From Zanthoxylum bungeanum (lineage: Eukaryota > Streptophyta > Magnoliopsida > Sapindales > Rutaceae): DNA of 64,000 nt. Below the pieces are notes generated by a model. The model ran no database searches, had not been told where the DNA came from, and worked only from the letters and a program-made list of their open reading frames with translations. The stretch lies in contig SKCR01034787.1 in NCBI GenBank assembly GCA_019454045.1, positions 141,644 to 205,643 of the forward strand, in the 5' to 3' direction. The position numbers and the translations under genes were made by a program. Positions 10,187 to 61,929 of the stretch are shown here, piece after piece (position 1 is the first letter of the stretch; every line of letters begins with the position of its first letter).

Positions 10187-11455
10187 TGATGAACATTAAA
10201 AATTGTACACTTAATAAAAGAAAAACTAATCATTTTATACTTATAATTTCATTAATCCCACTAATTTAGCACATTTGTAAAATACTAATTAAATTTATGT
10301 TTTATATATTTTTATTGTGATTTTTATTTCTTATGTAGGTGAAATAATACTTTGGATGAATAACTAGAATCTGGGTGTGACATTTGGATTTTGGAGGCCA
10401 AAAACTTAAAAGGGCGTTCTAACAGTGTACAATTTCAGAAATTCCAACCTTACGTAATTTTCGTATTTTGGCCATAACTTTTAACTTTGATATCAGGTTG
10501 AGACGATTCTAGTTCAAAATGAAAGAAGATCAAATATCTACAACTTTTCTTTTCATAAGATTTTCTAGTTCTAAGATTTTTAGATCGAAATTGACGAAAA
10601 ATCCAAAATGTATTATATGTAATTATTAAAAAACAAATTTGGTAGAGGGTTGCAATCCACCTTTCGGTGGATGCCTCCCAGTTGCAATTGTTGACAATTA
10701 CAACTTGCAATTGTTTGCAAGATTTTGAAGAGCCGAGCATCCTCTATAAATAAGAGGATGTTCAGCTCTCATATGCATACTTTCTTTCAATTCTCTGGTA
10801 GAATTTGAGAGATAATGTCTTGTGTGTTTTATTTTTTTTAAGCTTTCTTGTAATTTCTTTTTATTTTATTAATAAAATTATGCATGTTCTTATTCAAATC
10901 ATGAGTAACTAATTTCATCCTGTTGGGGTAAAAGGTGAAGCTGTTAATATGAAAATATAGATTAATCTTATTTATATTATAATATATAAATTGTAATCTA
11001 ATGATTAATATTTAATTTAAATATGGTTTAATTATTGACAAACTCTATTACCGTCTATATGGATGATTTTATTTATTTTGCATAATTGAGTACCTAACTG
11101 GACTTATTATAGAAAAATATTATCATCGTTTTTATGACTCGTTTTATTGTTTTGGCATAATTAATTCCTGAAATAAATTAATTGGGTAATAAAGACAATT
11201 TATATATTATAAAAAATAAGATTTCTCTAAACTCGAAATATTAAAAGTGGATCCTTAGCCCCATCATTTATTTTATTGTTGCAGTTTAATTTAAAGTTTT
11301 CAATCGCTTCAAACATATCACTCTTTTATTTTTATTTGAATTATTATTTTATCTTATTAAATCTATTCCCTGTGGATCGACCCCGGACTTACCAGGTTTT
11401 TTATTATTTCGACACTCTTATACTTGTAGTAAAGAACCACTTTGTGAGTGTGTCA
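10187..11455 (+). repeat. 5' LTR of A
   Basis: It begins TGATGAACATT after CCATG in the hAT gene and ends GTGAGTGTGTCA before the primer site. The first 190 bp recur at 44159-44352. It is a diverged relative of the E1/E2 LTRs: the stretch with CGTATTTTGG, CATAAC and ATCTACAACTTT (about 10465-10545) is recognisable in both. Confidence 0.85.
10745..10752 (+). promoter_or_regulatory. TATA box of LTR A
   Basis: TATAAATA in the context GCATCCTCTATAAATAAGAGG is at the U3 position expected for the LTR promoter. E1 has TATAAATA at the equivalent place. Confidence 0.6.
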
Positions 11456-11461: not shown

Positions 11462-11479
11462 TGGCACCGTTGCTGGGGA
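11462..11479 (+). other. Primer-binding site of A (tRNA-Asp type)
   Basis: TGGCACCGTTGCTGGGGA lies a few bases after the LTR end. It matches the Athila-lineage site (TGGCGCCGTTGCCGGGGA) with two C/G-to-T/A changes, which fits methylation-driven decay. Confidence 0.9.
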
Positions 11480-18614: not shown

Positions 18615-20212
18615 CTTAGACACTGCATTTTTACATGAGCTCGATGATGAGCCTCGTATGGAGGCACTACCTGAAAAGTTATGAAAGGTTCGAAAAATGA
18701 ATGCCAGAAGGAAGGAAAACCTCCAAAATTAGCACCTCATTGGATTCAGACTCACTGGCTAGCCTCAGATTCGCTCAGTCAGATTCTGCCTCAAACCTTA
18801 GCCCATGACCCACCATGCAAGCCCAATCCACACGCCCAAGGCCCCACACGCCCAATGACCATGAACCCATGCACATGACCAAATCTTCCCAAATAGACAA
18901 AAATCTCATGCAATTCACACATGCAAATTCCCTCATCAACACTTTCCAATTTAACAAGATGTGAAATCCCATCCTCACCAATTTAAAAAGATTTGAGATA
19001 TCCATCACCAAATTTGTGAGATTGTATTCCCAAAATAAATTGAGAAAATATCTCCCAAATCAATATGATTTGTTTCCCTATTTGGAGATCCCTTCAAATC
19101 ATTATAAATTAGGGACCAAATCATCACAAGAGAAGGAGGTTGGACCGAAAATGGACACAAACAAAAAACCCAGGGGCGTGAACAACAAAAAAAAATCCTA
19201 GTCTTTGTTCTTCTCATCACCGAAAGAACAACAGAAAAAAAAACCCTTGAGGCTCATTCTATTCTTCTTCTTCAAATCACCAAAACACACAAGAAAAAAC
19301 CCTAAGCCATCACATAAAACAACAGCCCTAAAACACCAAAAATAGTCCCAAAAAACCGAGAAATAAGCAATAAAAATACCATAAAAATACCCTCAAAAAA
19401 TGCCAAAACAGCGACCAAACAACCAGCCAAAAGCAACCCCTAAAGACACCAAAACAACGACCAAACAACCAGCCAAAAGCAGCCCCCAAAGACACCAAAA
19501 CATCAACCAAAATAGCAGCCAAATCACAGTGAAAACAGAAACCAAAACAGCGGCCAAAACAACCAAAACAGCAGCAAAAAAACAACCAAAATAGAAGCCA
19601 AAAAACAACCAAAACAACAGTCAAAACCAAAAAAAATATCAGTCAAAATAGCAAAAACATCAACCAGTCAAACAACAAAAACATCAACCAGCGAAACAGC
19701 AAAAACAGTAATAAGAAAATAGAAAAATCAACAACTTGTGAAACAGCAAAAATAGCTACCAGAAAATAGCAAAACAGGAACCAAAATAGCAAACAGCAAA
19801 CAACGAACCAGAAACAACAAACAGTGAACCAGAAACAGCAAACCTTGAAACCAAGCTTCAATCCTTCCGGCGACAGCCTAACGCACTTCCGAGAAAACAA
19901 CTTGAAAGGTAAGACCTGAGGGCACCCTTACCACATTTATTCTCATAGTTCCGGACGCTTCCAGCGGGTATGCGAAGTCCTACATCAAAGACGACCAAAT
20001 TTCTGGTCACATTCTTTTCTTTCCTCGGTATTTTGTTATTTAATTTTTTTTATCTATTTTATATTTATCCCTTTTTATTTATTTATTCACTTTCATCGTT
20101 ATTTTATTATTTCGCATTTAGTCTGTTATTTATCTTTTTGTCTTTTTATTGTTATTTTATTATTTCTCTTTTATTTTATTTGTTCATGTTGGTGATTATC
20201 CGCATATGTAGT
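18615..20212 (+). repeat. 3' LTR of B, first piece
   Basis: It matches 14379 to about 15945. The start has lost the canonical TG (CTTAGACACTG). The CAGCAA-type tract recurs at 19360-19850 with a different unit arrangement. It stops at ...CGCATATGTAGT, where C begins. Confidence 0.9.
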
Positions 20213-22739
20213 TGTTGGGGTTTTGGGCGATGGGGCACAGCGGAAGCGCGGGTTCGGGCGAAATCTTATTTTAAAACTTTTTCAAAAAACCGAATAAATT
20301 ATTCAATATCTAATATGAATAATTTATTCATATTTCACTTAAACCTATTTATTCAATATCACATATCAATATAAATATGGTGAAAACTCGCGAAACTTTT
20401 ATGAAAACCGTTTTTCCGCAAAATGGCCTAAAATGTGTTTTGACCGAACCGACCACCCGACACTTATGGAAACTGCCCAGGCCAGCTCCAATAGTCTCGG
20501 GGCAGTTCATGGGCTGCCCGAACAGAGAAGGATTCACTGTTTGGACAGCCGTCCCAGTAACACCGTTTTTGGCCGTTTTCGCTTATTTCAAGTCGGAAAC
20601 ACTTTCCGGCAATTGTGCCAACTCCTAAAACACATCCAAAACATTCAAAAGACACCAATTTCAAGACACAATCAGAATCATTTCCAGGTCACACCAGAAA
20701 ACGAAATTGAGCATAAATTCATGCTTTAATCCAATTAAAACCAAGATTAATCTAACTAATCCATCACAAAATGAATCCCACCAGAAATGAACAACTCTAG
20801 AACAATTCTAGGCTATTTAGAGTGAATCAATAACTCTAGAATGACAACAATTCATCAAATGAACAAATTGATTAAATTTGAAACTAATTACACTAATTAC
20901 CTTCAAATCTACATTTCACACATGCCAACACTTCCAAAATTTGATCCACAACCCAAAAGCCCCATTTTTTTTTTCTCAAATGAAAGAACCCTAGAACAAT
21001 TCTAAAACGCCAAGAAATAAGAAACTACTTTTCTAATCAAGGAAGTAAAAGATTACCTACTAATATTCATCTTTCCTAAGCTTTTCTTGATGGTTTCCTT
21101 CACTTTGATTGCTTGGATCATCATTCAAAATGAAAACCCATTTTCTAATAGGGCTCTCGGCAGCAGCAAAAAAAATTGGGAAAGAAGAAAACAATTTGTT
21201 TCCTTTTAAAGTGTTGACCGATTCTAGCAAAAAGAGGGGTAGAATTGTCTTTTGAAATTTATCAAATAATAAATGAATTACACCTTTTAATATCCAATCA
21301 TAATTGGAAAAATAAAAGTGTAATAAAGTCATGCCTAAAGTTCCAATAATATCTTGCCATTTATCATTCAAATAATGGCAAATTGGATAAGATATTAAAA
21401 TATCAATTATTTAATTATCTAACAATTAAATGATTAAATAAATAATCAACATACATATATGTATCTTATTTACAATAAATAAAAATACATATATTTATGG
21501 CATGTGTCAAAATCTCATTTGATGAATAATTAATGTGTAATTATTGTGTATTATGTATCAAATACAAATACACAATAATTATTATCGGTCAAAATCCCCT
21601 AATGCATGTGTTATCGTTTAACCAATTAAACGATCCGAATTAACTCATTTAATCCGGTGAAGTATTATGAATAATCCGTATTATTCATATCGTGTTGCTC
21701 AAATGCTCAACGAGTACACTTCATATTGTGGGACTCTATAAGTTTAGGTATATCCATCACGAAATCTAATTTCGTGTCCATAATCCACCCACTCATGGAT
21801 TATGACGACCACAGATAATCTCGCTAAACTATGCAAGTCGAGGTCATAGCATACGTATAATCCCTCTGTCACAAGCTATCCGTATTATACATGAGATATA
21901 GATCAGAACGTCAAATTCGTTCGCTATAATACAATTGACTTTCAATTTACGATCACGAAATAACACTCGAAACTGATTTTCGACGTTATACCACGGCCAT
22001 GGATTTACTAGATGGTAAACATGTGAGGATGCCTATGCCCTGTACACAGGACTGACGGATCATATCTTGATACGCACAGGATATCATGAGCATCAGTCCA
22101 CACCCAACGAACATGCGGATGTCTGATCATGACTAGATCGTTGACGTGACTGCCATCAAAGTGTGGAGGATAGCTCATATATCCACAGTGGTATCTTAAG
22201 TCGAAGAACCATTATGCTCGCTCAACTCGAGAAGGTTCATATTGACGTTGGTGTACCATATATTAGGAAACCTTCAGTGAGTTGTTCAGTGTCTTATCAA
22301 AGAAACACCTACATGTCTATATAAGTCTCCCAAGACTTATGGTTCACTGGGATAAACCATCGGACCAAGTCACGATATATGACATGTACTGGTCTCAACA
22401 GATTTACTAACCGACCCGTATTAGCAAATCTTGACCGGGAACTTTATTTAAGGATATATAACTAATAGTACGCTTTCCAATGTCAATTACAAACTACGTT
22501 GTAACTGTATACTATACTGTAAATCCTAGGGTTTTTGTCTAATATACACGTATCACTGAACCAAATTCAGTTTCGATCTAATCGTAATCAGATATCTAAT
22601 CTCAATTAGATCGAATAGGTGTATAAAAGACAAGGGTGCTACTATTAAATTAAGTAATATTATGAAAATATATTTGCTCGTATTTATGAATTGGACATAA
22701 ATACGATCCGGATTGGCACTCGGAGCACCAATCCTAACA
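20213..22739 (-). repeat. 3' LTR of C
   Basis: On the minus strand it runs from TGTTAGGATTGGTGCTCC to AAACCCCAACA. ORFs around 20377-20729 are conserved with 34711-35083 only as repeated LTR DNA. Confidence 0.9.
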
Positions 22740-32862: not shown

Positions 32863-34481
32863 TTTTCTATACGGAATAAGCATATAATGATTTTATGATA
32901 AAATCTCTTAAAGCACATATCCCAGTTATTTATTTTACTGGATTGTTTTTCTTAATGTTTATCTTTCATTAATGACACTACTAGTCGTATTAAAATATGT
33001 AACAACTGTTTATACAGAACAAGTAACTATCCAATAGTCACAATTTATGATATCAAATATCAAAATAGTTATTAAATATTATTTTAAATAATTAGACGGG
33101 AGATCTGGTATCCAATACATACAGTTGTCGTATTGCGAGAATTGATATTCTCTATACACAACTATACATATCTAATTTTTTAAGCTTTATGATTTGCGTT
33201 CAATTTTTTCACAACGATTGCAAATAATTGATTAACAAACTGTTTCATACACGCGACTTCTAAAAGTCACCAAAGCTAAGAAACGTCATTAAAAGATAAA
33301 CAAACACTTAAAGGGTTTTCTTAATGCCAGTCAAGAATCTCGAGACATGAACTGATTCGTGTCAATTCTTACTGCATAAGAAACAGTTCTAACTAGAATA
33401 ATATCCTAAACACATATATCCTTTTAGATTACCTAATTGTGACTTAGAAACTAAGTCACAAACCATCTTGATTTTTAAAGAAATCGGAACAACAGTTCCC
33501 GATGGTTTCAACTAATCTAACAATATCTAAGTCTACCATCTTTCTAGAAACTATTCTAGAACTACGCAACCATAAGTAAAGTCAGAAAATCTATTCTAAT
33601 AAAAGACATGCAGTGGATTAGAAGCATAAATCTATAAATAGTATAGAATATAAGGAAAAACAAAGCAGTAAACTCCATAATATTTCACACTGCCTGAGTT
33701 ATGATTTTAAACTCAGCAGTGTCTCCCACTACTTTACGTAATACCATAATCCCCAACGGGAATTCAATAATTAAATCGAATTCCATAGTGAGAGTGGGAT
33801 CCCATGAATATATTTCGACTCACAGATTTGGCACAATCCCGCCTACGTATATTCATTAGGTAGATAACTCATTGTCAATCACTCGCCAGTAACTCCTAGT
33901 TTCGGTCCTGAGCGCTTCTCGCTGTGACAGCTTTGTCACGTTCACAGGGAGGCGTATCATGGCTTCACTTGTCAATGACAAACTCAAGCTACCGATGTAG
34001 TCTTGACAGCTTTGGCATGTTCAGGATTTCCACTTTCACTTGAATTTGTCTAGTATCATTATACAACTGGCATGGATAAAATTCTATCAACTACACCCTC
34101 ACTGCTTTGGCACGATCTCGGATGCAGCCATAGAAAGTTACCCATAAATCGTATTGACAAGACGGACCAAGAAACATGCATCCAATACACGTTACTTTAC
34201 AGTCATATTTAAAAGCGGAGATTTTCCTACAGAATCTATACTCTACATCCAATGCAGAATTTTAATCTAAATAATTTTATAAACATTTCAATTCTACTTT
34301 AGAAAACATAACATAATTTAACTATTAAATTTCCGTTATATTTTCCGTTAGCGTAGAACTGAACAGTTAAGAAACATATCTAGATTCCTAGCATGTGCGA
34401 ACATTAAATTGGATTATATATCTAATATCAAGCATGAATAATGTAATGGATGAAGCATCAGACCCGCTCTGATACCATTTT
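32863..34481 (-). other. Noncoding interior of C, right part
   Basis: No coding signal is seen. Between 33725 and 34160 the plus strand carries repeated GCTTTG(G/T)CACG or GCATG elements (about 33825, 33930, 34010 and 34110) and another CTCCCACT motif at 33723. Confidence 0.6.
34466..34477 (-). other. Primer-binding site of C
   Basis: The minus strand reads TGGTATCAGAGC, a perfect initiator-tRNA-Met site, four bases inside the LTR. Confidence 0.95.
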
Positions 34482-37029
34482 TATTGGGGTTTTGGGCCAT
34501 GGGGCACAGCGGAAGCGCGGGTTCGGGCGAAATCATATTTTAAAACCTTTTCAAAATACTGAATAAATTATTCAATATCTAATATGAATAATTTATTCAT
34601 ATTTCACTTAAACCTATTTATTCAATATCACATATCAATATAAATATAGTGAAAACTCACGAAACTTTTACGAAAACCGTTTTTTCCGTAAAATGGCCTA
34701 AAATGCGTTTTTGACCGAACCAACCACCCGACACTTATGGAAACTGCCCAGGTCAGCTCCAATAGTCTCAGTGCAGTTCATGGGCAGCCCAAACAGTGAC
34801 AGATTCACTGTTTGGACAGCTGTCACCCGGTTGGCTCAAAATCCACCCGATAACGCCGTTTTTGGCCGTTTTCGCTTATTTCAAGTCGGAAACACTTTCC
34901 GGAAATTGTGCCAACTCCCAAAATAAATCCAAAACATTCAAAAGACACCAATTTCAAGACAAAATCAGAATCATTTCCAGGTCATACCAGAAAACAAAAT
35001 TGAGCATAAATTCATGCTTTAATCCAATTAAAACCAAGATTTATCTTATTAATCCATCACAAAATGAATCCCACCATAAATGAACAACTCTAGAACAATT
35101 CTATGCTATTTAGAGTGGATAAATAACTCTAGAATGGCAATAATTCATCAAATGAACAAATTGATTAAATTTGAAACTAATTACATTAATTACCTTCAAA
35201 TCTACATTTCACACATGCCAACACTTCCAAAATTTGATCCATAACCCAAAAGCCCCAATTTTTTTCTCAAATGAAAGAACCCTAGAAAAATTCTAAAACG
35301 CCAAGAAATAAGAAACTAATTTTCTAACTCAAGGAAGTAAAATATTACCTACTAATCTCCATCTTTCCTAAGCTTTTCTTGATGGTTTCCTTCACTTTGA
35401 TTGCTTGGATCATCATTCAAAATGAAAACCCATTTTCTAATAGGGCTTTCGGCAGCAGCAAAAAAAATTGGGAAAGAAGAAAACAATTTGCTTCCTTTTA
35501 AAGTGTTGACTGATTCTAACAAAAGGAGGGGTAGAATTGTCTTTTGAAATTTATCAAATAAATAAATGAATTACACCTTTTAATATCCAATCATAATCAA
35601 ACAAAAGAGTAATAAATTCATGCCTAAAGTTCCAATAATATCTTGCCATTTATCATTCAAATAATGGCAAATTGGATAAGCTATTAAAATATCAATTTTT
35701 AATTATTTAACAATTAAATGATTAAATAAATAATCAACATACATATATGTATTTTATTTACAATAAATAATAAATACATATATTTATGGCATGTGTCAAA
35801 ATCTCATTTGACGAATAATTAATGTGTATTTAATCGTATTATGTATCAAATACAAATACACAATAATTATTATCGGTCAAAATCCCCTAATGCATGTGTT
35901 ATCGTTTAACCGATTAAACGATCCGAATTAACTTATTTAATCCGGTGAAGTATTATGAATAATCTGTATTATTCATATCGCGTTACTCAAATGCTCAACA
36001 AGTACACTTCATATTGTGCGACTCTATAAGTTTATGTATATCCATCACGAAATCTAATTTCATTTCCATAATCCACCCACTCATGGATTATGACGACCAC
36101 AGATAATCTCGCTAAACTATGCAAGTTGAGGTCATAGCATATGTATAATCCCTCCGTCACAGACTATCCGTATTATACATGGGATATAGATCAGAACGTC
36201 AAATATGTTCGGTATAATACAATCGACTTTCAATTTATGATCACGAAATAACAATTGAAATTGGTTTCCGACGTTATACCACGGCCATGGATTTACTAGA
36301 TCGTAAACACGTGAGGATGCCTATGTCCTGTACACAAGACTGACAGATCATATCTTGATACGCACATGATATCATTATCATCAGTCCACACCCAACGAAC
36401 AGGCGGAGGTCTGATCATGACTAGATCGTTGACGTGACTGCCATCAAAGTATGGAGGATAGCTCATATATCCACAGTGGTATCTCAAGTCGAATGACCAC
36501 TATGCTCGCTCAACTCGAGAAGGTTCCTATTGACGTTGGTGTACCATATATTAGGAAACCTTCAGTGAGTCATTCAGTGTTTTATCGAATAAACACCTAC
36601 ATGTATATATGAGTCTCCCAAGACTTATGGTTTACTGGGATAAACCATCAGACCAAGTCACGATATACGACATGTACCGGTCTCAACGGATTTTACTAAC
36701 CGACCTGTGTTAGCAAATCTTGACCAGGAACTTTATTTAAGGATATACAACTAATAGTGTGCTTTCCAATGTCAATTACAAACTATGTTGTAACTGCATA
36801 CTATACTGTAAATCCTAGGGTCTTTGTCTAATATACACGTATCACTGAACCAAATTCAGTTTCGATCTAATCATAATCAAATATCTAATCTCAATTAGAT
36901 CGAATAAGTGTATGAAAGACAAGGGTGCTACCATTAAATTAAGTAATATTATGGAAAATATATTTGCTCGTATTTGTGAATCGGACATAGATACGATCCG
37001 AATTGGCACTTGGAGCACCAATCCTAACG
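34482..37029 (-). repeat. 5' LTR of C
   Basis: It is nearly collinear with 20213-22739, with scattered substitutions and small indels. The terminal dinucleotides have mutated (TATTGGGG in place of TGTTGGGG at the left edge, CCTAACG in place of CCTAACA at the right). Confidence 0.9.
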
Positions 37030-41287: not shown

Positions 41288-41731
41288 ATGGAAGAATTCT
41301 CGTAAAATTTCACAATCATTTTCCTTCTCTCCCTAAAATACTCTATTGAAAATTTACAAAGCACGCACCGAAAGAATGTGGCTTTTTTATGATCAATGGT
41401 ATTCTAGTGATATTCGTTGGGTAATTGAAGTAAGAGTTCGCTTGTAAAGTGAGTCATCTGACTCTTTCATTTCTTACATACTTGATTGAGGGAAAAACAC
41501 TCATGCTAAAAGCTGTCGAGCTAAACAATTAGGTGTTTGTTATAAATATGTAAGCTGGACGTGCAACACTCGTTGTCGTTCGTGTCTGACAATCGCGAAG
41601 ATAAAATTCAATTCATTAGAGATGGCTTGAGTAAGAAGTCTTTAGATGATATATGATTGACTCTTGAGATTCATCATAGTGGACATGTTAATCGAGTAAT
41701 TCGCAATTTGAATACACAATTTCAAAAATAA
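41288..41731 (+). pseudogene. Carlavirus NABP-like Cys-rich ORF in A (decayed copy)
   Basis: This is the counterpart of the open ORF at 52319-51870. The same Met-Glu-Glu start (41288), the block DIRWVIE, the stretch SESSDSFIS, and CNTRCRS are readable, and the two proteins end alike (HTQF). Stops interrupt it (for example after VRVRL and ISYILD), one Cys of the cluster has become Tyr (CYKY), and a frameshift follows CNTRCRS. It lies between integrase and the LOG-like gene, as in E1. The family call rests on the E1 copy. Confidence 0.7.
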
Positions 41732-42122
41732 AGATAATAATACAGTCTCAGGAATCTGACTTTAAAAACCCTGTTTGCCAATTTATAAGAAAATTGGATG
41801 GGAAGCATATCCCTGAACCATAGAGGTCTTTCAATCCGTTACTGGACGTAAAACCAGAGGAAGATATGAGCCACAATCACAACTACCAGTACATATTGTT
41901 TTAATTTATTGCTTTGATTTTCTTTATTTTAATTTACTGTCTTGATTTCCTTTACTTTTGCTGACAATATCTAAACTTTTTGACTTTCACGGTCTATTTT
42001 AATGTTCATCTGAAAATTGTCATTTTGCAGGTACTAGTGCTTTTATTACTCACCATTTTTCAGGATCTATAAATACAACTCATCATTTCCCTATTCAACA
42101 GATACATATAAGAGAGAATAAA

Positions 42123-42807
42123 ATGGAGAAAACTTCAAGACGACGAGTCACTAATATCTTTGGTTTTATGGAACTAGCATTGGAACTAAACCATCATTTG
42201 TTGAAGCTGTAAAAGAATTGGGTAGAGTTATGGCGGAAAGAAACATGCACATAGTATATGGCAGTGGAAATCTTGAATTGATGAGATATGTTTTAAAGGC
42301 CATGCAAGAAGGTGGCAGTAAAGTTTTGGTGATCATTCCAAAACCTTTGGCAGACATAAGCCTTATTGGAAAATCAAATGGAGAAGAATACATTGTCTCA
42401 TGTATGTCTGGAAGACTTAATGAAATGATTAATCATACTGACACTTTTTTCTTTACCACATTGGCTGGGCACGTTGGAGGAAATATTCACAGTTGCGTCA
42501 TGGGCGAAATTAAACATTCACCCAAAATCCATTGGACTACTTAATGTTGATCACTTTTTTGATTTTCTTTTAGTATTTCTTGAGGATGCCAAAAGACTTG
42601 GGTTCATTTCGAAATCGATAAAAGATATCATCTTTTTTTTTTTGAAAAAGGATAAAAGATATCATCTTAACTGTAATAAAAATTGATGAATTAATTGACC
42701 AACTCTTAGCTTATGAACTAAAAATCGACCTCATTCTTTCCAAGTTGAACTGGTCTGATAACGATCATGGCAAGAGGTGTAGAGTGGACTTGAATCTTAA
42801 TTTGTAA
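42123..42807 (+). pseudogene. LOG-type cytokinin phosphoribohydrolase captured in A (decayed copy)
   Basis: LOG enzymes release active cytokinin bases from cytokinin riboside 5'-monophosphates. Readable in order are MEKTSRRRVTNI at 42123, GTSIGTKP, RNMHIVYGSGNLELM, a helix YVLKAMQEGGSKVLV that is missing from the E1 copy, IIPKPLADISLIGKSNGEE, the degraded nucleotide-binding motif (P-H-W-L-G-T-L-E-E in place of PGGxGTxxE), IFTVASWAKLNIH, and the C-terminal LSKLNWSDN. A frameshift in the T-run near 42450, a deletion at CVFCGSS and a poly-T insertion near 42635 break it. The frame ends at 42805-42807 after a tail, GKRCRVDLNLNL, that ordinary LOG enzymes are not known to me to have. Confidence 0.85.
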
Positions 42808-44158: not shown

Positions 44159-44352
44159 TGATGAACATTAAAAAGTGTACACTTAATAAAAGAGAAATTA
44201 ATTATTTTACACTTATAATTTCATTAATCCTTTTTTAATTTAGCACATTTGTACAATAATAATTAAATTTATATTTATATATTTATATTTTGATTTTGAT
44301 TTCTTATGTTGATGAAATAATTCTTTGGATGCATAACTAGAAAATTGGGTGT
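44159..44352 (+). repeat. 3' LTR of A, truncated by F
   Basis: TGATGAACATTAAAAAGTG to AATTGGGTGT matches the first 190 bp of the LTR at 10187. The rest is displaced by F, which starts with TGTTGGGG at 44353. Confidence 0.9.
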
Positions 44353-47434: not shown

Positions 47435-48464
47435 TGTAGAACATCGTATAGTTACAAAAATTACGGAATATATCCTACAACATGAATTCTTATCGAGTTG
47501 ACCTTTGAGGGTTATGGCAGGAACCACAAAATGCTTCGACTAAGTAACACTATTGACCGGTGCTTACACACGCGTATAACGCAAGCGCACGTATCGTTCA
47601 AGTAGTATAAAAAGTATCGATTCCACAAGGACTTAATACCTAAGCTATTAATTTTATGAGGTCAAATGATTACTAGTATCTAACAGGTTGTTTGATTGAT
47701 TTGAAATGGTGACAATCCTAAATTTAAAAACAAGTAAATAAAATTGTTCGAAAATAGATTTTAAGAAAATTCAATATTAAAAAACTATCTAGGGTTGTGA
47801 TTTCCTCCAATACCATTTTAAAGATGAAGTGATTATTTTATAGTTGGGTAATATATTGATTTATTATCCTGGAACACTAAATTATTTGAAAGCCTCTGTC
47901 GATGGTCAGACGCAAATACCCAGTTTAACCCAATTGAACCATATGTTTATGTCAACCAAATTATTTGGATTCATTAAGTTTAAGTTCCAATTATGGCTAC
48001 CCCCGCCCGACAGGTATATGTCTATCCTGTAAGGAAATCTATTAAAGGGTTATCTATCCTCAAGGAAGATCATGGGCTATTGAGTCTAAGGTCTTAAACA
48101 TAAAATCCCTATGTCTAGTTCATTTTAAGTTTCCCAGTTCAATTTTATTAATGGCCAGTTAATGAAAAAGCATTAAGATTAAGACTCAATAAATAAATCT
48201 TTATATTACCCAAACTATAATCTAACCCCTTATAAACCGGTGATATTAAAAGTCATCACAACCCCAGATAACTAATTTAGTTACAACAAATAACTAGGGC
48301 TTTAAAAGACATAAAGTAAAAATACTGAAAAGTAATTGCGGTAAAGTAAAAGTTGAAAAGTAAATTGCAATAAAATAAAATAAAATGCTAAGGCAAAAAG
48401 ATCAACTTTTACTACTACTAATTTAGATATCTCCCATAATATAATATATAAACTTGTGATAACA

Positions 48465-48660
48465 TTACCAACTAGCCATATAGGCGGTATCCTGATTAAG
48501 TCAAATTAAGTCCAACCGGCCATTAAGGCGGAACCAAAATAAACCTGCCATATAGGCGGTAAGAAAATTTAATTACCAACCGACCAATCTGGCGGTATCC
48601 TTAGTCAAGTTTAAACCATATTAAAATGAATTACCAACCGATCAATCTGGCGGTATCCTT
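48465..48660. repeat. Five GCCATATAGGCGGTATCC-like units in LTR E1
   Basis: Degenerate units of the form CCAACCGxCCAxTxxGGCGGTATCC are spaced 30 to 60 bp. The same block recurs in LTR E2 at about 55210-55405. The GGCC/GGCGG parts make short inverted repeats. Confidence 0.75.
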
Positions 48661-48983
48661 TTTATGTCAAATTTTAAATAGTGAATATATTATATTAAAG
48701 GGAGATTAATCTAAATAGCAATAGTAAAAGAATTACATTTCACCCTAGCAGGGGGAAGTTACCTCCTCATTACTGAAAAGTAAAAACTGAAAATTAAAGA
48801 AAGAAAAGTACTGTGCGTAAAAGTAAATTACGGAAAGTGAAAACTGAAAAGTAAAGAAAGGAAAGTGCGAAAGCGGAAATTAATTACTGAAAGCTGTAAA
48901 TAAACAAACAAGATACAATATTCTTAGTATTCTTAAGGAATTCCTTAGAAGAAAGTATGAATTTTACAAATGAAACGGCTTGG

Positions 48984-48991
48984 TATTTATA
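48984..48991 (-). promoter_or_regulatory. TATA box of LTR E1
   Basis: The minus strand reads CCTATAAATACCAAGCC. It lies downstream of the region homologous to U3 of A, at the equivalent place. The E2 LTR has changed it to CTGTAAATA. Confidence 0.6.
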
Positions 48992-49613
48992 GGCAAAATT
49001 TTGCCTCCATCAAATCATCCATCAAATTCTCCACCAAATCCATTATTAATTTCTCCACTAATTACTCCACCAAATCCATTATTAATTTCTCCACTAATTT
49101 CTTATCATGTTTGGTGATGATTTGATAATTTGATAATTTATTTATTAATTTATTTTTTGCTTTGAAAATGATTGAAAATGACTTTAATAATTACACACAA
49201 CACACTTCTGGATGGTTCATCAATTTCGGTCATGAAATCTTCAGAATTCGAAAATATTTTGTCTTTCAAAGTTGTAGATCTTTGAGTCTTCTTTAATCTG
49301 GAACTCGAATCAGCTCAATTCCATATTGGAGTAAAAGGTTATGCCCAAAATACGACAGATGTGAAAAATTGGAATTTCCATAACTGTACTTTGTCAAAAA
49401 TGCCCTTTCAAGTTTCCAATCTCCAAAATTAAAATATCAAGTCCAATAATTGCCCTTATTTGACCCATATTTTGTCCTAAATGATTTCATTGAGACTCGA
49501 TATTATTTTATCTGCAAAATAAACTAAAACACATCAAAATGTTCATCAAACCCGAGCTAAACAAAATATTAAGTTAAATGGGCGGTAAATATTGATATAT
49601 TTTCCGCTCATCA

Positions 49614-50913: not shown

Positions 50914-51522
50914 TTAAAGGTTAAGATCCAGATTAACACGACGCCTCTTACCACGATCGTCCTCGGACTAATTTATCTTTGAAAGGATAGGGTCAACTTG
51001 TGGTTCATAGGCTAAGATTTGGTCAATTAGATCCGGAGCAGTTCTGGCAGTAAAGAGGAGTTCTTTCATAGGTTTTGACACGAACCCATTTCTTCGAGCA
51101 TCATCAAGAAACACACAAAGAAAATCATAAAATCCTTCAACGTTGTACAGTCCAAGCGGTTTCTGGTGTATGTTCAAGTTCGCCCAAGATAACACTGTAA
51201 ATATTTCCTCCAATGTACCCAAGCCACCTGACAAAGTAATAAAAGCATCAGCACGGTTAATCATTTCTACCAATCGTTCAAACATACCTGGCACGATCAG
51301 TTCCTCTCCATTTGATGGTTCAATAAGATTTGCCTCCGCCAAAGGTTTTGGGATGATTCCCATAAGTCCAAGATTGCCACCGCCATATACTAAGTGCATA
51401 TTTCTTGCAGCTAAGACTCGACCCAATTCTTGTGCTGCTTCTACGTATTGTGGTTTAGTACCAACACTACTACCGCAAAACACGCAGATATTTTCAACTC
51501 GTCTTCTTGAAGTGGCTTCCAT
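50914..51522 (-). CDS. LOG-type cytokinin riboside 5'-monophosphate phosphoribohydrolase captured in E1
   Basis: LOG enzymes hydrolyse cytokinin nucleotides to free bases in the cytosol or nucleus. The ORF starts at Met 51522 (MEATSRRRVENICVFCGSS) and is open for 184 codons to a TAG at 50970-50968. Seen in order: CVFCGSS (residues 13-19), LVYGGGNLGLMG (44-55), SGGLGTLEE (98-106, the PGGxGTxxE motif with Pro changed to Ser and the catalytic-type Glu kept), LSWANLNIHQKPLGLYNVEGF. Relative to the A copy, 45 bp (15 codons after GLMG) are deleted in frame, removing a helix of the Rossmann fold, so activity is doubtful. Past the stop the frame continues 17 codons to a TAA at 50916-50914: SEDDRGKRRRVNLDLNL. 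In A the stop codon is TGG (Trp), so the tail was once part of the protein. Possible splicing was not seen. Confidence 0.85.
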
Positions 51523-51869
51523 GTTTTACTCTGGATGCTTTCAAATGTGCAATGATGAATTGAATTTATAACACCTAAAAAATGTGAGTAACAATAATAG
51601 AACTAGTACCTGCCAAATGAAAATTATTAGTTAAATAGTATAATGAATCGTGATAGTCAAAAAGGTCGGGATTCTGTCGGAGAAAATAAAAGAAAACAAC
51701 AAAACAAATCCCAATTATTAGGAAAAGACAAAGATATAAATATGTACAAGAATATACAGCTTGATTGACGTCTATCGTCAGAGACAAGCTTCCCATCCAA
51801 TTTTCTTATAAATTGGCAAACAATGTCTTTTTTAGTCAGATTCCCAAGACTTAACTGTTGTCTTTCTTT

Positions 51870-52319
51870 TTAAAATTGTGTATGTAATTTGCGAAAGGCT
51901 TTGTGAACATATCCACTAGGATGCGTCTCAAGAGTCGAAGATATATCATCTAAAGACTCCTTACTCAAGCCATCCCTAATGAATTTAATTTTGTCATCGC
52001 GATTATCAGACACCATTCCTAAAGAACGACAACGAGTATTGCAATTCCAGCGTGCACATTTGTAACAAACACCCATTTTCTTAGCTCTACGTTTCTTTGC
52101 ATAGGTGCTTCTTCCAAAACCAGACAGATGTGAAATAAAAGAGTCAGAAGACTCACCTGCCAATCGGATTCGTGATTCAATTACCCATCGAATGTCATTA
52201 GGAACACCATGGATTGTTAGTAGTCTCATCCGTTCCAAGCGAGCTTTGTAAACTTTCATCAGAGATTTTTGAGGGAGAGAAGGAAATTGCTTGTGAAGAT
52301 TAGCTAGAGCTTCTTCCAT
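51870..52319 (-). CDS. Small basic Cys-rich protein resembling carlavirus nucleic-acid-binding protein
   Basis: This is an open ORF of 149 codons from Met 52319 (an upstream Met at 52352 gives 160; the shorter start is shared with the A copy). Residues 69-80 read GRSTYAKKRRAK, a basic patch directly followed by a Cys cluster, C85-x2-C88-x4-C93-x3-C97 (CYKCARWNCNTRC), then DNRDDKIKFIRDGLS. This arrangement, a Gly-Arg-Ser-x-Tyr-Ala basic box, a zinc-binding-like Cys cluster and a hydrophobic Ile-Arg-x-Gly segment, is that of the Cys-rich nucleic-acid-binding proteins at the 3' end of carlavirus and related plant RNA virus genomes (Pfam Viral_NABP). These bind RNA and influence symptoms or silencing. 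The N-terminal 65 residues are unfamiliar. It sits between the integrase tail and LOG on the same strand. The alternative is an unrelated plant zinc-binding protein. Confidence 0.6.
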   Translation of the reverse strand: MEEALANLHKQFPSLPQKSLMKVYKARLERMRLLTIHGVPNDIRWVIESRIRLAGESSDSFISHLSGFGRSTYAKKRRAKKMGVCYKCARWNCNTRCRSLGMVSDNRDDKIKFIRDGLSKESLDDISSTLETHPSGYVHKAFRKLHTQF

Positions 52320-52454
52320 CTTAAAATGACTTAATCTGCAAAAACTAAACACACAAAATTAAATCACACCAAATCACAATATATACACAAATTGCATGGG
52401 TTGCCTCCCTCCGAGCGCTAAGTTTAAAGTCGTCAGCTAGACGTGACTCGAACG

Positions 52455-52880
52455 TTAAGCTGGATCTGAAAGTGTTACACTTTCTTTTTTTCGCTCAAAT
52501 GATTCTCCCCAGTAGTGTTTGACACGCTTGTTTTTAACCTTGAAAGTTTTGTTGGAGTCAGGATCATGTATCTCAACGGCTCTGTCTTGTAAAACCATTG
52601 TGATCACAAATGGACCTGAACACCGTGATTTTGGCTTCCATGGGAAGAATTTCACCCTTGATTTGTTTAACAGTACCTTCTGCCCTGGTTCCAGTTGTAT
52701 GCGCACTAACTTCTCATCATGTCTCTTCTTGGCCTTTTCTTTGTACAATTTGGCATCCTCAAAAGGCTGATTGTGAAATTCCTCCAATTCGTTGAGCTGA
52801 TGGAACTTTTTCTCTTCTGTTGATTGTAGAGCAATAATAGGCTTCTTCAGTACGCAGTGCGCTTTATCTTCAGACTCCAC
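52455..52880 (-). pseudogene. Integrase C-terminus of E1, joined to protease by an internal deletion
   Basis: From about 52820 the frame reads FHQLNELEEFHNQPFEDAKL and RHDEKLVRIQLEPGQKVLLN, then FFPWKPKSRCSGPFVITMVL and FKVNKRVKHYWGE-like end residues: the Athila integrase C-terminal domain, same as 40730-41060 in A. Upstream there is no integrase core, RNase H or RT. The protease ends only 40 to 100 bases before. A functional integrase cannot be made, so the copy depended on relatives. Confidence 0.88.
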
Positions 52881-52916: not shown

Positions 52917-54178
52917 TTATCTTTTATCAGAGTTCTGAATGGTACTATGTATCACATCAAGTCTGAAACATTCCTCATTCTCGTCATTCGGGAAATTCAT
53001 GGCTTTAAAAGCATTGAATGTTACTTCTTGGTCCTGTACCCTCATGGTTAGTTCTCCTTTTTGTACATCAATAATGGTTCGACCTGTAGCCAAGAATGGT
53101 CTCCCGAGGATGATTGGCACGTCTGCGTCTTCCTCCATATCAAGGACAATGAAATCTGCTGGGAAAATGAATTTGTCAACCTTGACTAGCACATCTTCAA
53201 CTAAACCTCTCAGAAATATGAGCGTTCTATCAGCAAGTTGTAGTGAGACTGAAGTGGGCATTGTTTCACCAATCTGCAGTTTCTTGAAAATAGAAAAAGG
53301 TATCAAGTTAACACCAGCACCTAAATCACACAGAGCCTTACCGAAGTCATGTTCTCCTATGGTGCAAGGAACAGTGAAACTGCCAGGATCTTTCAACTTT
53401 GGAGGAAGTTTTCTCTGAATGATGGCGCTGCATTCTTCTGATAATGCTACTGTCTCATAATCTCCCAATCTCCGCTTTCGTGATAGAATGTCTTTCATAA
53501 ATTTGGCTTAGCTGAGCATTTGTTCCAACGCTTCTGCAAATGGAATGTTGATATGCATTTTTTTGAACACCTCCAAGAATCGAGCAAATTGCTTGTCCAG
53601 TTTATTCTTCTGAAGACTCTGAGGAAAATGTGGAGGTGGAGTGATCTGTTCTTTTTCCTTTGCTTCTTTTTCCTCCATTTGTTGCTTTGTTTCTTTTAGA
53701 ACTTCCTCAGCAGTTGTTTTGGCTCCAACATCTTTGTTGATTTCAGTACCACTTTTTAACATGATGGCATGACACTGCTCCTTCCCCATGTTCCTCGGAT
53801 TTGGTTCAGTGTTGCTAGGAAGGTTACCTGGCGGTCTGTAACTCTAAGCATTGGCCAGTTGTCCAATTTGATTCTCCAGTGCTTTAATAGAAGCTGATTG
53901 ACTTTGAATTAATGCTGTTTGGGATTGAAACATAACATCATATCTTGCTGCTTGAGAGTCGTGTTTTGCTTCTATCTTTTTCAAGTGGATCAACACTTCT
54001 GTTATTCTTGATTCATTTGACTGCTCCTGGCCTTTGTTCTGTTGTTGGAATCTGGGTGGTGGGTTGTTCATTTGCCCTGAATTGTTGCTCTATGCAAAAT
54101 TTGGATGATTCCTCCACCCTGGGTTGTAGGTGTTGGAATATGGATTGTTCCCATGTCTGTTGAAATTGTTGAAACAAA
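52917..54178 (-). pseudogene. gag: gag C-terminal part and protease of E1
   Basis: The frame runs from the truncation at 54178 through a nucleocapsid end (NPYSNTYNPGWRNHPNF), the Gln-rich block with QSASIKALENQIGQLANA, and a linker (MGKEQCHAIMLKSGTEI, 53789 on) to LDKQFARFLEVFKKMHINIP. The protease proper (53498 on) follows, with CDLGAGVNLIPFS (active-site DLG), SLQLADRTLI, VLVKVDKFIFPADFIVLDME and VPIILGRPFLATGRTIIDVQ. Only three stops (near 54091, 53844 and 53505) break one continuous frame. They sit where Trp, Asn-like and Tyr codons are expected, so this copy is much less decayed than A. It ends at 52917. Confidence 0.92.
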
Positions 54179-57347: not shown

Positions 57348-59442
57348 TGTTGGACAGTTATGACCCATAGCGTCACTATTTGTACAGATCATAGTGTTGT
57401 TGTATAAATTAACTATGTGACAAAGGAGATTGCACTCTTATCATTTGTGATTAGATCACCTTAGATATATAAATGATAGGAGGTTCTTATGATTTGTTCC
57501 TAGATTGAGAATGATATGAGACAGTATCAATCAACGAAGGATAAATCATTAAACATCCCTAGTCAGAGCATTGTCGAGATTGGACATCGATAGATGCGTA
57601 CAAGACTAGTATTACACTTGTGCGTGTTATGTGAGACATAACGGCATAGTTCTCATATATTTGGGTATAGGATACTCGGGCAAGTGTAATAGGAGGTTGT
57701 GTTTCACCGATGGTACGGGAAACAGCTTCGCTCTGGATTAGACCACCGCAGAATCCCATTGGTAGTATGACCTTGTGTCTATGTGAGTCTGCAATCAGGG
57801 TATGTGTATTTGGTCTTAACCTGAGACTTGCACCGCTAATACTTGCGACAATCAATGTACTTTAGTTGAGGTCGTCCAGGGCTTTAACAGGTTCTGTGTA
57901 CGCCGATGCTGGGTATATTGAGAATTGTAGTGTATTGGGTGTGATGTCAAGACGGAAGTGTCACTCCAGTCATATGGAGATGATGGTCACGTAGGATACG
58001 GTATTAGTGCTCTTATATGCTGCGCGGCTATCGGGATATTATGACTCGGTCATGTATATCCGATTATAGCCTAGTTACCAGACATCCGACATGTGCTTCA
58101 TACGGGGCAGACACATATCCAGCCCCAGGCCTAGCACGTGATCATTCGATATTGGATCGAAATACGCAATACTACGTATACTAAGCCCGATATAGATCAC
58201 ATATTCCTGTAAGGATATTTCCGGAGAATTGGGTAGGCATGGCGCTTTGCTAGAGGCCAACCTTGTCTTGTAAATTGGTAAAACGTATACTTGGTACTTA
58301 CGTGTTCGGATAGTCCGACGACCGAATTTACTGCCAACATATCCGGAGATCTCATGGGTCGCTTCCCAATGATACACCGATGACGTATGACTCGCATTAT
58401 TATTAATCTGGGATTAATTAGAAGAGAGAGAAAATTAATCTGGGATTAATTACGGAGATATTTTATCTAGGATAAAATATCAATTTAAAGAGAGAGAACG
58501 ATTAATTTGGAATTAATCGATAAATAATATATTCGATATATTAAACGAAATTGGATTTCGATTAGGAATTAAAATTAGATTTTAATTCGGGTACTTGAAT
58601 TAATTTAGAATTAATTCTCGAGCGACGTGATTAGTAAATTGGATTTATTAACGAGGCATCGAGAAAATCGTTAATTTAGAATTATCGAAATCGAGCTCAG
58701 AATGTGTTTGCGAAGTTACGTCGATTTTGAATCACGTGCCGCAAGTCGCATCACAAATCACATCGCAAGTCATAAAAGTCAAATCGCTTTTTGGAAAAGT
58801 AACTTTGACTCTTTGACTTTGACCTTTAAAATTTGGAGGGAAATTTTGGGGGGGGGGGGGGGGAAAGACTTTTAACTTTTTGGAAAAGTGAAAGCCTTTT
58901 CCTTTTCACCTTTTACCAAGGGTAAAATGATTTAATAAACATTATTACATTTGTTTTATTCTTTTTGGAAAGAAAATAAATGGTAAAACATTTTAGTAAT
59001 TTTGGAAATTATATAAGTGAAATGTTTACACACTTTTTCCCTTAACCTAATCTCTCATCCATCTCTCTTTTCCTCTCACATGGTCACGCCCAAGGCAGTG
59101 AACTGCCCAGGGTTGGCCGAAAATGATGATCCATTTTGAGGGTTTTGTGGCAAGATCCAAGTGCTAGCACACTCCTAAGAGGCATACGAAGGTGTTAGGG
59201 AAACTCACCCACGAGCCGGGAATCGTTTGACGCAAGTTCGAGGCTCAAATTCATGGACCAAAACTGAAAACAGTGAGCAGTGGATTGCACACTATTGGCG
59301 CCACTTTGAAGGGGAAAATCTTTGTGTTCTTCTTCAAATTGTCACAACCGATCGATGTGAGTATTCCGCTATCTCCTTTGATGTATTCACACTTATTATT
59401 CATGCTTGTTTGATGATCTTGGGACCTAGAATAAAACCAACA
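57348..59442 (+). repeat. 5' LTR of H
   Basis: TGTTGGACAG to AAACCAACA. It contains a run of 16 G (58848-58863) just after three TTTGAC repeats (58803-58822), both missing or altered in P1. ORFs on the minus strand at 57559-58397 are not maintained in P1. Confidence 0.88.
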
Positions 59443-59457: not shown

Positions 59458-61137
59458 TAGGTTCAAGCATGAAAGTTTAAGGCTTAAAATTGGGTATTTT
59501 GTATTTGAGCATGATTTGAATAAATTGGATGTTTAAGTATGCTTAATACATATTTAATTGAATATTGATTAGATCAATTTCATGAATTAATGTTTGAAAC
59601 ATTTTTCCCCAAATATTAAAGTTGGCCTAAAATGATAAATTGGGTATTTTGAATTTGAGCATGATTTTATGAAATTGGATGATTAAGTATGCTTAAATAT
59701 GGTTGAATTGAAGATTGATTGGATCAATTTCATGAAAATGTGATTGGATCATTTTTCCCAAATGTGCTTATGGTGGCCGAATTTGATAAGTCCTAATTGT
59801 CTTGGAATTTTGATTTTTTGTTCATTAGATGAATTGGAAATCATTTGGGGATATGATTTAATGTCGATTGTGTAATTGATTGGATTGAATTTGAATCGGA
59901 CATAAAATCCCCAAATTGCCAAGACTTTGAAGCATGAAATGGGTTTGATTTTTCATTAAATGTGTGGGCATGTGATAATGAAATTGTGCATGATTAATTG
60001 TAAAATTAATGTTTTAGAAATGTTAATTTGGGTAATTAATCATGTAATACAATTTAGGTTAATTGAATGTGAAATTGGATTTTTGTATTTAATTAATTGG
60101 GCCTTGAAATTGGATTTTGGCTTTTAAAGTTGTCATTGGGCTTGTTGGGCTTTGTTGTACAAAGTTAGGTTTAGGCAAATTGGATTGGATCCAATTGGCC
60201 CAAAACCGCTTCCATAAAGCCCAAATGCGATTTAATGAACCTTTAAAGTTTAATTGGGCCTAATGGGCCAAGATTGATTTATGGGCTTATGGGGTAAATC
60301 CCGGATTGGATTTTGGTTATTCGGTTTGACCCGAGTTGACCAAAAGTCCACGCCTTAAGAAATCAATTAAAAGCCCATTGGACTTTAATTGAATTGACGT
60401 TGGACGTTAATCGGTCTTTGAGACGCGTTGCGATTAAATTTGGAATTTAAGTCGTAAAAGGTTTATTATTAAAGTGTAATATTTAATTTGGAATTAAATA
60501 ACGAATTAGAATTGAATGCATATTAAATTGGATTTAATGACGTAGTTTAATTTAATTCGAGAATTCGTACTTTGAGTACTTATTCGCAAAACGAGTTTGA
60601 CTCGATCAAAATCAAATCGTTGTTTGAACATTGGATGATCACTAATTATCAGATTAATTAATTTGATTAGATTGATTGATAACATGCTTGTGTGAATACT
60701 TGGTTGTGATGAATGAATAGTGTATGTCAGATGGATATAAGTCGGGTGGGGGCAATTGGAAATTGTTGTAATAAATTCGATTTATTAAATTGGACCTGCG
60801 TGTCCAGCCTTATCACCTCTATTCTATTTGTATTCTCTTCTCATCTATTCCCCTCAATATATATGAGGTTTCTTTAGAAGTGTAGTGTAACGGGTAGAAG
60901 TGATACAAGTGCTAGCATGGGAGTTAAAGAGAGATTTGATCTAGGATCAATGTGTTAAGTATCCATCCGCATATCATTATTGTTTATTTTCATATGCGCT
61001 TTATTATGTATTTAGAATGCATGTTTAAGGGTGTATGATGATGAGACCTTAACAAAGATAATAAATTGGTAGCCAATTTGCACGCGAAAAACCATCATCA
61101 AATATCATGCTTTTTTCCTTCATTGAGTCATTCTTAC
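59458..61137 (+). other. Leader of H, noncoding
   Basis: AT-rich, no ORF supportable. A duplicated segment is visible: AAATTGGGTATTTTG and the following 80 bases occur near 59488 and 59637. The stretch matches 550-2050 of the window inverted. Confidence 0.6.
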
Positions 61138-61398
61138 TCAAGATCCGAGATTGGCATTGGGTTGTTGGCCAAAGTCAAGCCCTTTGTCCGTCGAAAATGT
61201 GTTTGAATCACGAGAGTTTTGTTCTATATTGGTGTCTTGTCCAAGTTGTGGTTTTTTGGCCAAAGTCAAGACCACTTCTTGTCCATCGACATTGATTACG
61301 AAGCTTTCCATGGTCAATGGGTCGCGCTTGACTGGGATCATTAAGCTTGTTGTGCCAAAGCCAATGCTTAGTTGATTCAGAGGAAAAAGGTTAGGCAA
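61138..61398 (-). other. Open antisense ORF in the H leader (unknown)
   Basis: An 86-codon ORF runs opposite to H. It contains LMIPVKRDPLTMESFVINVD, QEVVLTLAKK and ends LDFGQQPNANLGS before TGA. The inverted copy P1 (about 268-530) carries the same reading with frameshifts and amino acid differences. I recognise no family. It may be a relic gene transcribed against the element or chance openness of a repeat-bearing region; the repeated DNA motif TTGACTTTGGCCAACAA overlaps it twice. Confidence 0.4.
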
Positions 61399-61929
61399 TA
61401 TATTGGATGTATTGGCATATATAAGATATATGTTAAGGATTTGGATATCCTCCTACTGGATCTAGGAATTGGATTGGATCAAATTGATCTTAGAGATCTA
61501 CCTAGTTAAATATCATACAATTTGTTGGCCAAAGTCAAGATTGTGTGTTATTTAACGGGATCCTAGCCCACTAGGAAACGCGGTTTCCTGAGTACTCGAC
61601 AGAAGGTTAGAGGCTCGCCGAAAAATAGTGGGAGGAAATTGAATTTGCAATACTCGTTTATTACTTGCCATACACGCTCAAAAAATATCATTCGTCGTTA
61701 TGATTTAAATGTCAGTTAGACTAATATTTAAATCGTTGTTTTATTAAATAGTTGGACTATATATTCAAACTATTCAATTATAGTTGATTTTATAATTGGA
61801 TTATAGTAATCAATGTAATGGATTTTAAAATCAATATATTATAGTACCTTAATTATTGATTAAATAGTTGGACTATTAAAAATCAAGATATATATGAAAG
61901 ATTGGACATTTAAAACATAATCTTGGATT

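What the first reader, a model, noticed from the sequence alone, without database searches (positions are those of the whole stretch)
50914..51522. An Athila-type retrotransposon carries a LOG cytokinin-activation gene in sense orientation
The ORF at 51522-50914 has the full LOG layout: CVFCGSS start, VYGGGNLGLMG, a GGLGTLEE nucleotide motif and a NIHQKPLGL segment. It lies between the integrase tail and the 3' LTR of E1, on the element's sense strand, where env-like ORFs sit in other Athila elements. A second copy at the same place in element A excludes chance insertion next to a host gene. An LTR element spreading a hormone-activation gene would be new to me.
Basis: partly seen in the sequence, partly recalled or inferred. 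Interest (0 to 1): 0.92.

Follow-up and report, generated by a model that had tools for sequence, protein, structure and literature searches.

The report
Plant retrotransposon carrying a cytokinin-activating gene
A jumping-DNA family in this plant genome carries its own copy of a plant hormone-activating enzyme gene; such elements were reported before in citrus, but here a piece of the gene occurs in about 22,000 places, mostly decayed, often next to a second, virus-like gene.

Summary
The ORF is real and LOG-like: 50968-51522(-), 184 aa, Pfam Lysine_decarbox E 8.7e-31. The E1 copy is broken: 15 core residues missing, P to S in PGGxGTxxE, early stop. E1's "5' LTR" is a duplicated 3' block without primer site.

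In other copies of the same 3.96-Gb genome LOG lies inside genuine elements: LTR pieces on both sides in 10 of 11 copies, exact 5-bp target duplications in 3 of 4 inspected. The element LOG motif occurs 21,808 times, the canonical LOG motif 21 times. Of 18 motif places taken in contig order 0 are intact; hundreds of ranked matches are open. dN/dS between element clades is 0.11-0.18.

Element LOGs run uninterrupted, follow a splice-site-like tract (36 of 37) and usually end in LxLxL (25 of 29; 0 of 108 canonical LOGs). Upstream often sits an ORF matching carlavirus nucleic-acid-binding proteins.

LOG-bearing LTR elements were already reported from Citrus and Populus, so the capture is not new; scale, selection, tail and partner gene I did not find in print.

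The parts
50968..51522 (-). LOG-like ORF (184 aa), with a 15-aa in-frame deletion and a premature TAG relative to 217-aa relatives
51570..51600 (-). 3' splice-site-like tract (pyrimidine run + AG, then GTGTTATAAAT) upstream of the LOG ATG; approximate coordinates
   Evidence: AG kept in 36 of 37 copies examined, E1 (L001) among them
51870..52352 (-). ORF similar to carlavirus nucleic-acid-binding / cysteine-rich protein (in-frame ATG near 52319)
   Evidence: (PF05515 E 1.3e-6, PF01623 E 3.3e-6, both above cut-off)
52455..52880 (-). integrase C-terminal tail-like ORF (label by resemblance)
   Evidence: ORF; found upstream of the NABP-like ORF in 15 of 20 genome copies; no Pfam match
52917..53498 (-). 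aspartic-protease-like ORF, 37 nt upstream of the integrase tail
   Evidence: no Pfam match for this ORF; a genome copy matches Asp_protease_2 only at E 0.022, below cut-off
53499..54173 (-). C-terminal part of gag, frame-disrupted (label by resemblance to the genome copies)
   Evidence: gag of another copy (L031) matches PF03732 E 2.6e-23
47554..49613 (-). 3' LTR of E1 (TGATGAGCGG...CCGGTCA), preceded by the purine-rich TTTGGGGGTG
42123..42804 (+). second, degenerate LOG copy, in element A
41288..41834 (+). remnant matching the NABP-like ORF region, upstream of the second LOG copy
10187..11455 (+). probable 5' LTR of element A (TGATGAACATT...GTCA), followed by a primer-site-like sequence at 11462-11479; its link to the LOG at 42 kb across nested insertions is inferred
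44159..44352 (+). start of the probable 3' LTR of element A (87.7% to 10187-10378; the rest was not matched), preceded by TTGGGGGG

Best explanation
An Athila-type Ty3/gypsy lineage took in an intronless LOG copy long ago and kept it as an accessory gene between pol and the 3' LTR. Source copies still encode a LOG-fold phosphoribohydrolase, most likely made from a spliced subgenomic RNA, and selection on those sources has kept the protein while the family multiplied. Inferred step: LOG releases active cytokinin in the cells where the element is transcribed, favouring division of cells that carry new insertions and so their passage to the germ line. Thousands of daughters, E1 among them, are internally deleted and decayed passengers. 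Shown: anatomy, motif copy number, open frames in a minority, purifying selection, predicted fold, conserved splice-site-like tract. Inferred: mRNA origin, expression, enzyme activity, benefit.
For: LTR pieces on both sides of LOG in 10 of 11 copies; target duplications in 3 of 4. 21,808 exact matches of the element LOG motif, reversed-pattern control 0, against 21 for the canonical motif, control 0. No stop in the matched part in 143 of 150 and 142 of 150 best-scored matches; these lists overlap. dN/dS 0.11-0.18 between clades A, B, C and 0.22-0.23 within A and B (29 open-frame copies). PGGxGxxEE invariant in 30 of 30 relatives aligned (T in at least 90%). Model pLDDT 86.6, best match 2a33 at rmsd 1.2. 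With a Nicotiana LOG3 query, the 150 matches scored (of 58,360 candidates) are uninterrupted element copies at 49-52%; none is a near-identical full-length match, as expected if host LOGs are split by introns and element LOGs are not. Splice-site-like AG in 36 of 37 copies.
Against: 0 of 18 copies taken in contig order have an intact ORF, so the typical copy makes no enzyme. Copies used for dN/dS were ranked by protein similarity, which lowers dN; the 18 unranked copies against the nearest open-frame copy give 0.38. An open frame is not always an intact protein (L054 has a frame-shifted stretch without stop). Many copies lack pol, so LOG would act in trans, which selection on single elements explains poorly. 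No expression or activity data. RT was not retrieved, so Athila placement rests on primer site, LTRs, gag and layout. dS between clades (1.0-1.5) is near saturation.
Confidence: 0.6

Rival explanations
1. The LOG fold was repurposed: the element protein works in the nucleus through its basic + LxLxL (EAR-like) tail, for example by recruiting a corepressor, or on other nucleotides, and cytokinin release is not its selected role.
For: C-terminal LxLxL in 74 of 85 full-length element-type proteins and 25 of 29 open-frame copies here, 0 of 108 canonical LOGs; tail predicted disordered, residues 204-217, as for a short linear motif; element clade separate from the canonical LOGs sampled.
Against: PGGxGxxEE invariant in 30 of 30, which pure repurposing need not keep; early-branching Xanthoceras members have only the basic part. 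The nuclear and EAR readings are recalled knowledge, not tested.
Confidence: 0.25
2. Passenger: the LOG was captured once and is copied along with no function; open-frame copies are simply young.
For: 0 of 18 unranked copies intact; the seven LTR pairs dated are young, 93.7-98.6% identical; other plant LTR elements carry captured host domains.
Against: dN/dS 0.11-0.18 over inter-clade distances far larger than the LTR divergences; second codon positions change about a quarter as often as third (1414 to 5506); frame, C-terminus and splice-like tract kept across clades.
Confidence: 0.12
3. Chance neighbour: a host LOG lies beside retroelement debris and the repeat is an assembly or duplication effect.
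For: E1 itself is a rearranged, duplicated block.
Against: LOG between LTRs with target duplications on different contigs; 21,808 motif matches.
Confidence: 0.01

Closest known systems
Athila-like elements with a LOGL4-similar extra ORF (Steinbauerova et al. 2011, recalled, not held) and YgdH-domain LTR elements of Citrus and Populus (PMC9289625, section 12 read)
   Same: LOG/YgdH domain coded within Ty3/gypsy LTR elements of eudicots
   Different: The section read gives no copy number against host LOGs, no selection test on LOG, no C-terminal tail and no viral-like partner gene. Here: 21,808 motif matches, an adjacent NABP-like ORF in 15 of 20 copies, a conserved splice-like tract
Canonical plant LOG (LOG1-LOG8) cytokinin riboside 5'-monophosphate phosphoribohydrolases
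   Same: Fold (2a33 at rmsd 1.2), PGGxGTxxE motif, length
   Different: 46% identity of relative P0001 to At2g37210; uninterrupted coding frame inside LTR elements; C-terminal basic + LxLxL tail; separate clade
Carlavirus nucleic-acid-binding / cysteine-rich proteins (PF01623, PF05515)
   Same: Basic stretch followed by a Cys-rich segment; both Pfam cut-offs passed by the window ORF
   Different: Coded upstream of LOG in LTR elements; relatives in eudicot genomes; function untested
Orchid Ty3/gypsy elements with a captured m6A demethylase (PMC9289625)
   Same: Host-type enzyme domain kept by plant LTR elements
   Different: Different enzyme; found in two Phalaenopsis species in that screen (section 12)

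Membership tests
Athila lineage of Ty3/gypsy | LTRs starting TG and ending CA with 5-bp target duplication | tested here: met
   Genome copies C36125 (GATAG), C23074 (CTAAA), C49406 (CTTAT), 3 of 4 inspected; fourth unresolved. Not met by E1, which lacks a 5' LTR
Athila lineage of Ty3/gypsy | tRNA-Asp-type primer site TGGCGCCGTTGCCGGGGA after the 5' LTR (pattern and label recalled) | tested here: met
   9 of 11 copies within 4 mismatches, 4 of them exact; element A 2 mismatches; not found in E1
Athila lineage of Ty3/gypsy | Retrotransposon gag domain | tested here: met
   PF03732 E 2.6e-23 in genome copy L031
Athila lineage of Ty3/gypsy | Aspartic protease | tested here: inconclusive
   E1 ORF no Pfam match; genome copy L027 E 0.022, below cut-off; element A's ORF passes Asp_protease_2 (25.9 of 24.3 bits)
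Athila lineage of Ty3/gypsy | Extra sense ORF(s) between pol and 3' LTR | tested here: met
   NABP-like and LOG ORFs
Athila lineage of Ty3/gypsy | Reverse transcriptase groups with Athila | not tested
   RT was not searched for in the copies fetched
LOG (cytokinin riboside 5'-monophosphate phosphoribohydrolase) | Lysine_decarbox / TIGR00730 profile above curated cut-off | tested here: met
   E1 ORF; 30 of 30 relatives match PF03641. The equivalog NF058542 stays below its cut-off, 87.5 of 300 bits
LOG (cytokinin riboside 5'-monophosphate phosphoribohydrolase) | PGGxGTxxE motif and complete Rossmann core | tested here: not met
   Not met in E1 itself (SGGLGTLEE, 15-aa deletion); met in 217-aa genome copies and relatives
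LOG (cytokinin riboside 5'-monophosphate phosphoribohydrolase) | Phosphoribohydrolase activity on cytokinin ribotides | not testable with these tools
   needs a bench assay
Carlavirus NABP / cysteine-rich protein | PF01623 and PF05515 above curated cut-off | tested here: met
   Window ORF 27.4 bits (cut-off 20.9) and 29 bits (cut-off 23); 19 and 20 of 24 relatives at E <= 0.001; of three genome copies scanned, L022 passes both, L013 only PF05515, L027 matches neither
Carlavirus NABP / cysteine-rich protein | RNA silencing suppression, nuclear transcription-factor activity | not testable with these tools
   Properties of viral CRPs taken from passages of PMC12172455

The most novel reading that the evidence does not exclude
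This retrotransposon lineage carries a two-gene host-manipulation cassette: a carlavirus-type nucleic-acid-binding protein (viral relatives suppress RNA silencing, and one induces cell proliferation as a transcription factor) and a cytokinin-activating LOG with an added nuclear/EAR-like tail. Together they would blunt silencing and push carrier cells to divide: a retroelement that works on the hormone state of its host, which could explain how one genome came to hold some 22,000 element LOG segments against about 21 canonical ones.
Probability: 0.22. Interest if true: 0.88.

Novelty: new member of a known kind. Interest (0 to 1): 0.58.

Why it matters
LTR elements are usually thought to need only gag and pol. 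A hormone-activating gene kept under purifying selection in an element family, at about a thousand motif copies per canonical motif copy, would make the question 'do plant retrotransposons manipulate development to reach the germ line?' directly testable, starting with a single-enzyme assay. It is also a practical warning: in this genome the 150 best-scored matches to a canonical LOG query are all element copies, so LOG gene counts in large eudicot genomes can be swamped.

Tried and rejected
Considered and rejected: host LOG beside debris; E1 as an intact LTR element; my own early reading that most copies are intact, which came from similarity-ranked lists and fell when 18 unranked copies were read.

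Paper searches (ten): I saw the listings, passages of PMC9289625, PMC7264820 and PMC12172455, and section 12 of PMC9289625. One search (retrotransposon + carlavirus + nucleic acid binding protein) held no paper; no listed paper held the two NABP family names. Nothing in the other listings pointed to a LOG amplification by elements; those papers were not opened. The library lacks most subscription journals.

Slip: the tree label calls 5zbj a Corynebacterium protein; it is the Pseudomonas aeruginosa LOG. It served only as outgroup.

Full report
OBSERVATION. It matches Pfam Lysine_decarbox (PF03641, E 8.7e-31) and TIGR00730 (E 2.2e-43); the best solved-structure match is Arabidopsis At2g37210 (E 2.7e-46). 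Chance is excluded. Against 217-aa relatives at 79-83% identity (P0001-P0003) the E1 copy lacks 15 residues between GLMG and IIPKP, has SGG for PGG and ends early where relatives have a Trp. In the model of P0001 the missing residues 56-70 cover most of helix 52-63 and half of strand 68-73. E1's LOG is very probably dead.

SURROUNDINGS. In sense, E1 reads: C-terminal gag, protease-like ORF, integrase-tail-like ORF, NABP-like ORF, LOG, purine tract, 3' LTR (49613-47554). The block taken for a 5' LTR holds pre-LTR sequence, an LTR and about 125 bp of post-LTR flank and joins gag without a primer site: a segmental duplicate. A second LOG copy, degenerate, sits at about 42123-42804(+). It probably belongs to element A, whose 5' LTR (10187-11455) is followed by a primer-site-like sequence with 2 mismatches and whose 3' LTR starts at 44159; the two LTRs match over only about 195 bp (87.7%) and the link across nested insertions is inferred.

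THE FAMILY IN THE SAME GENOME. The window lies in an unnamed 3.956-Gb assembly of 51,709 contigs; a search with the E1 LOG had 67,850 first-look candidates, of which 150 were scored. I fetched 20 six-kb stretches round LOG matches from the rows listed there: NABP-like ORF and integrase tail lie upstream in 15 of 20; five lack both within the stretch, and the two of these looked at further have other ORFs between primer site and LOG. In 9 of 20 the protease-like match ends 40-46 nt before the integrase tail, so RT, RNase H and integrase core are gone there. For 11 of the 20 I fetched more upstream flank, for 6 of these also downstream. LTR pieces lie on both sides of the LOG in 10 of 11 (one interrupted by an insertion) and a tRNA-Asp-type primer site lies downstream of the 5' LTR in 9 of 11, 4 exact. 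Target duplications: GATAG, CTAAA, CTTAT in 3 of 4 copies inspected; the fourth was not resolved. LTR identities of seven copies are 93.7-98.6%; ages of 0.5-4.7 My follow from substitution rates that I recalled.

COPY NUMBER AND INTACTNESS. The back-translated element motif WANLNIHQK has 10,917 + 10,891 = 21,808 exact matches, reversed-pattern control 0; it misses diverged copies such as element A's. The canonical motif WAQLGIHDK has 21, control 0. A NABP motif has 2,909 + 3,015 = 5,924, control 0. Of the 20 NABP places in the contigs that both capped lists cover, 10 have a LOG motif 902-962 nt downstream on the same strand; chance is about 5.5e-4 each. Best-scored lists show mostly open frames: no stop in 143 of 150 and 142 of 150, overlapping lists; of 25 copies, 23 read in full, 18 are open to 217 codons or more (three of them near-identical) and 7 have stops; of 15 fetched, 14 read through as LOG and one, L054, is frame-shifted without a stop. 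But of 18 copies taken in contig order from the pattern list 0 are intact (95% upper bound 18.5%). At least 4 of the first 100 motif places (C39, C62, C85, C126) recur among open-frame rows, which by extrapolation suggests some 240-2,165 open copies (rough). So: a minority open, the bulk decayed.

SELECTION. 29 open-frame copies fall in three clades (23, 5, 1); dropped before the count were copies with stops, the near-duplicates L008 and L011, the duplicate L047 and the frame-shifted L054. dN/dS is 0.22-0.23 within clades and 0.11-0.18 between them. On 23 copies with stops included it is 0.23, with codon-position differences 3040/1414/5506; NABP 0.34 (14 copies), protease 0.16 (7), integrase tail 0.36 (17). 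In the first sample of 20 the 3' noncoding flank differs by 0.11 on average and LOG dS is 0.15. The 18 unranked copies against the nearest open copy give 0.38, a mixture of old constraint and later decay. Ranking by protein similarity biases within-clade values down; inter-clade values are less affected but near saturation in dS.

PROTEIN. In 30 aligned relatives PGGxGxxEE is invariant and the T nearly so. The model (pLDDT 86.6) matches 2a33 at rmsd 1.2. C-terminal LxLxL: 25 of 29 open-frame copies, 74 of 85 full-length element-type proteins (those of 214-260 aa among the 120 listed), 0 of 108 canonical plant LOGs from the capped list. The tail is predicted disordered. The element-type proteins (34 + 29 own) form one clade (support 0.94) beside 102 canonical LOGs (0.96), rooted on a bacterial LOG; long-branch effects are possible. 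That the relatives from other eudicots are element-borne is an inference from their multiplicity (for instance Xanthoceras clusters of 35 and 39 members) and from the published Populus case.

INTRONS AND EXPRESSION. With a Nicotiana LOG3 query the 150 matches scored (of 58,360 candidates) run uninterrupted over about 200 codons at 49-52% identity; no near-identical full-length match appears, as expected if host LOGs are intron-split. A tract of the form ACTCACCCTTTTCAG|G, followed by a TATAAAT that starts 48-70 nt before the ATG, keeps its AG in 36 of 37 copies, from all three clades; a 3' splice site is the simplest reading. Athila env-like genes are thought to use spliced RNA (recalled). No RNA evidence was available.

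PARTNER GENE. The ORF upstream matches Viral_NABP and Carla_C4 above cut-off. 212 proteins match it at E <= 0.001; of the 120 listed, those with a named species come from Populus, Acer, Xanthoceras, Orobanche and Rhamnella. Of 24 relatives aligned, 20 and 19 match the two families; of three genome copies scanned, one passes both, one only PF05515, one neither. Viral cysteine-rich proteins of this kind are silencing suppressors, and that of chrysanthemum virus B acts as a transcription factor inducing hyperplasia (passages of PMC12172455). Whether the element took it from a virus or the reverse is open.

KNOWN. PMC9289625 (section 12 read) reports the YgdH/LOG domain in Citrus and, without its filter, Populus LTR elements, in line with Steinbauerova et al. 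2011 (not held; abstract recalled). PMC7264820, a review of extra ORFs in plant LTR elements, does not mention LOG or cytokinin (term search). The capture is therefore known. I found no print record of the copy number, the selection, the tail or the NABP partner in the ten searches made, judged from listings and the passages named, in a library that lacks most subscription journals.

VERDICT. A genuine new member of the LOG-bearing Athila-type elements. The individual E1 copy is a broken passenger; the family is the interesting object.

Noticed in passing
51870-52352(-), and 15 of the 20 loci L009-L028: Carlavirus-type nucleic-acid-binding ORF beside the LOG, with relatives in several eudicot genomes; no report of it in retrotransposons found.
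   Followed up: partly
L014, L028 with flanks L044, L043 (contigs C34436, C15959): Shorter element class with LTR pieces, primer site and LOG but no detectable protease, integrase tail or NABP; it carries other ORFs with a Cys-rich piece.
   Followed up: partly
C-terminus of element LOGs: Basic stretch plus LxLxL (EAR-like, recalled) tail in most element-type LOGs and in 0 of 108 canonical plant LOGs.
   Followed up: partly
L001, L002, L003: Three copies on different contigs share the 15-residue in-frame gap in LOG, so deleted LOGs may also have been copied, or arise repeatedly between short repeats.
   Followed up: no
13748-14119: Tandem 186-bp duplication inside the protease-like ORF of element A.
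   Followed up: no
14-1674 / 59988-61646 and 2724-3986 / 57348-58617: Two inverted repeat pairs (81% and 83%) towards the ends of the window.
   Followed up: no
20212-22738 / 34481-37028: A 2.5-kb LTR-like direct pair (93%) nested between the two ends of element A.
   Followed up: no
3921-4658(-): Copia-type gag ORF with zinc knuckle (PF14223, PF00098).
   Followed up: no
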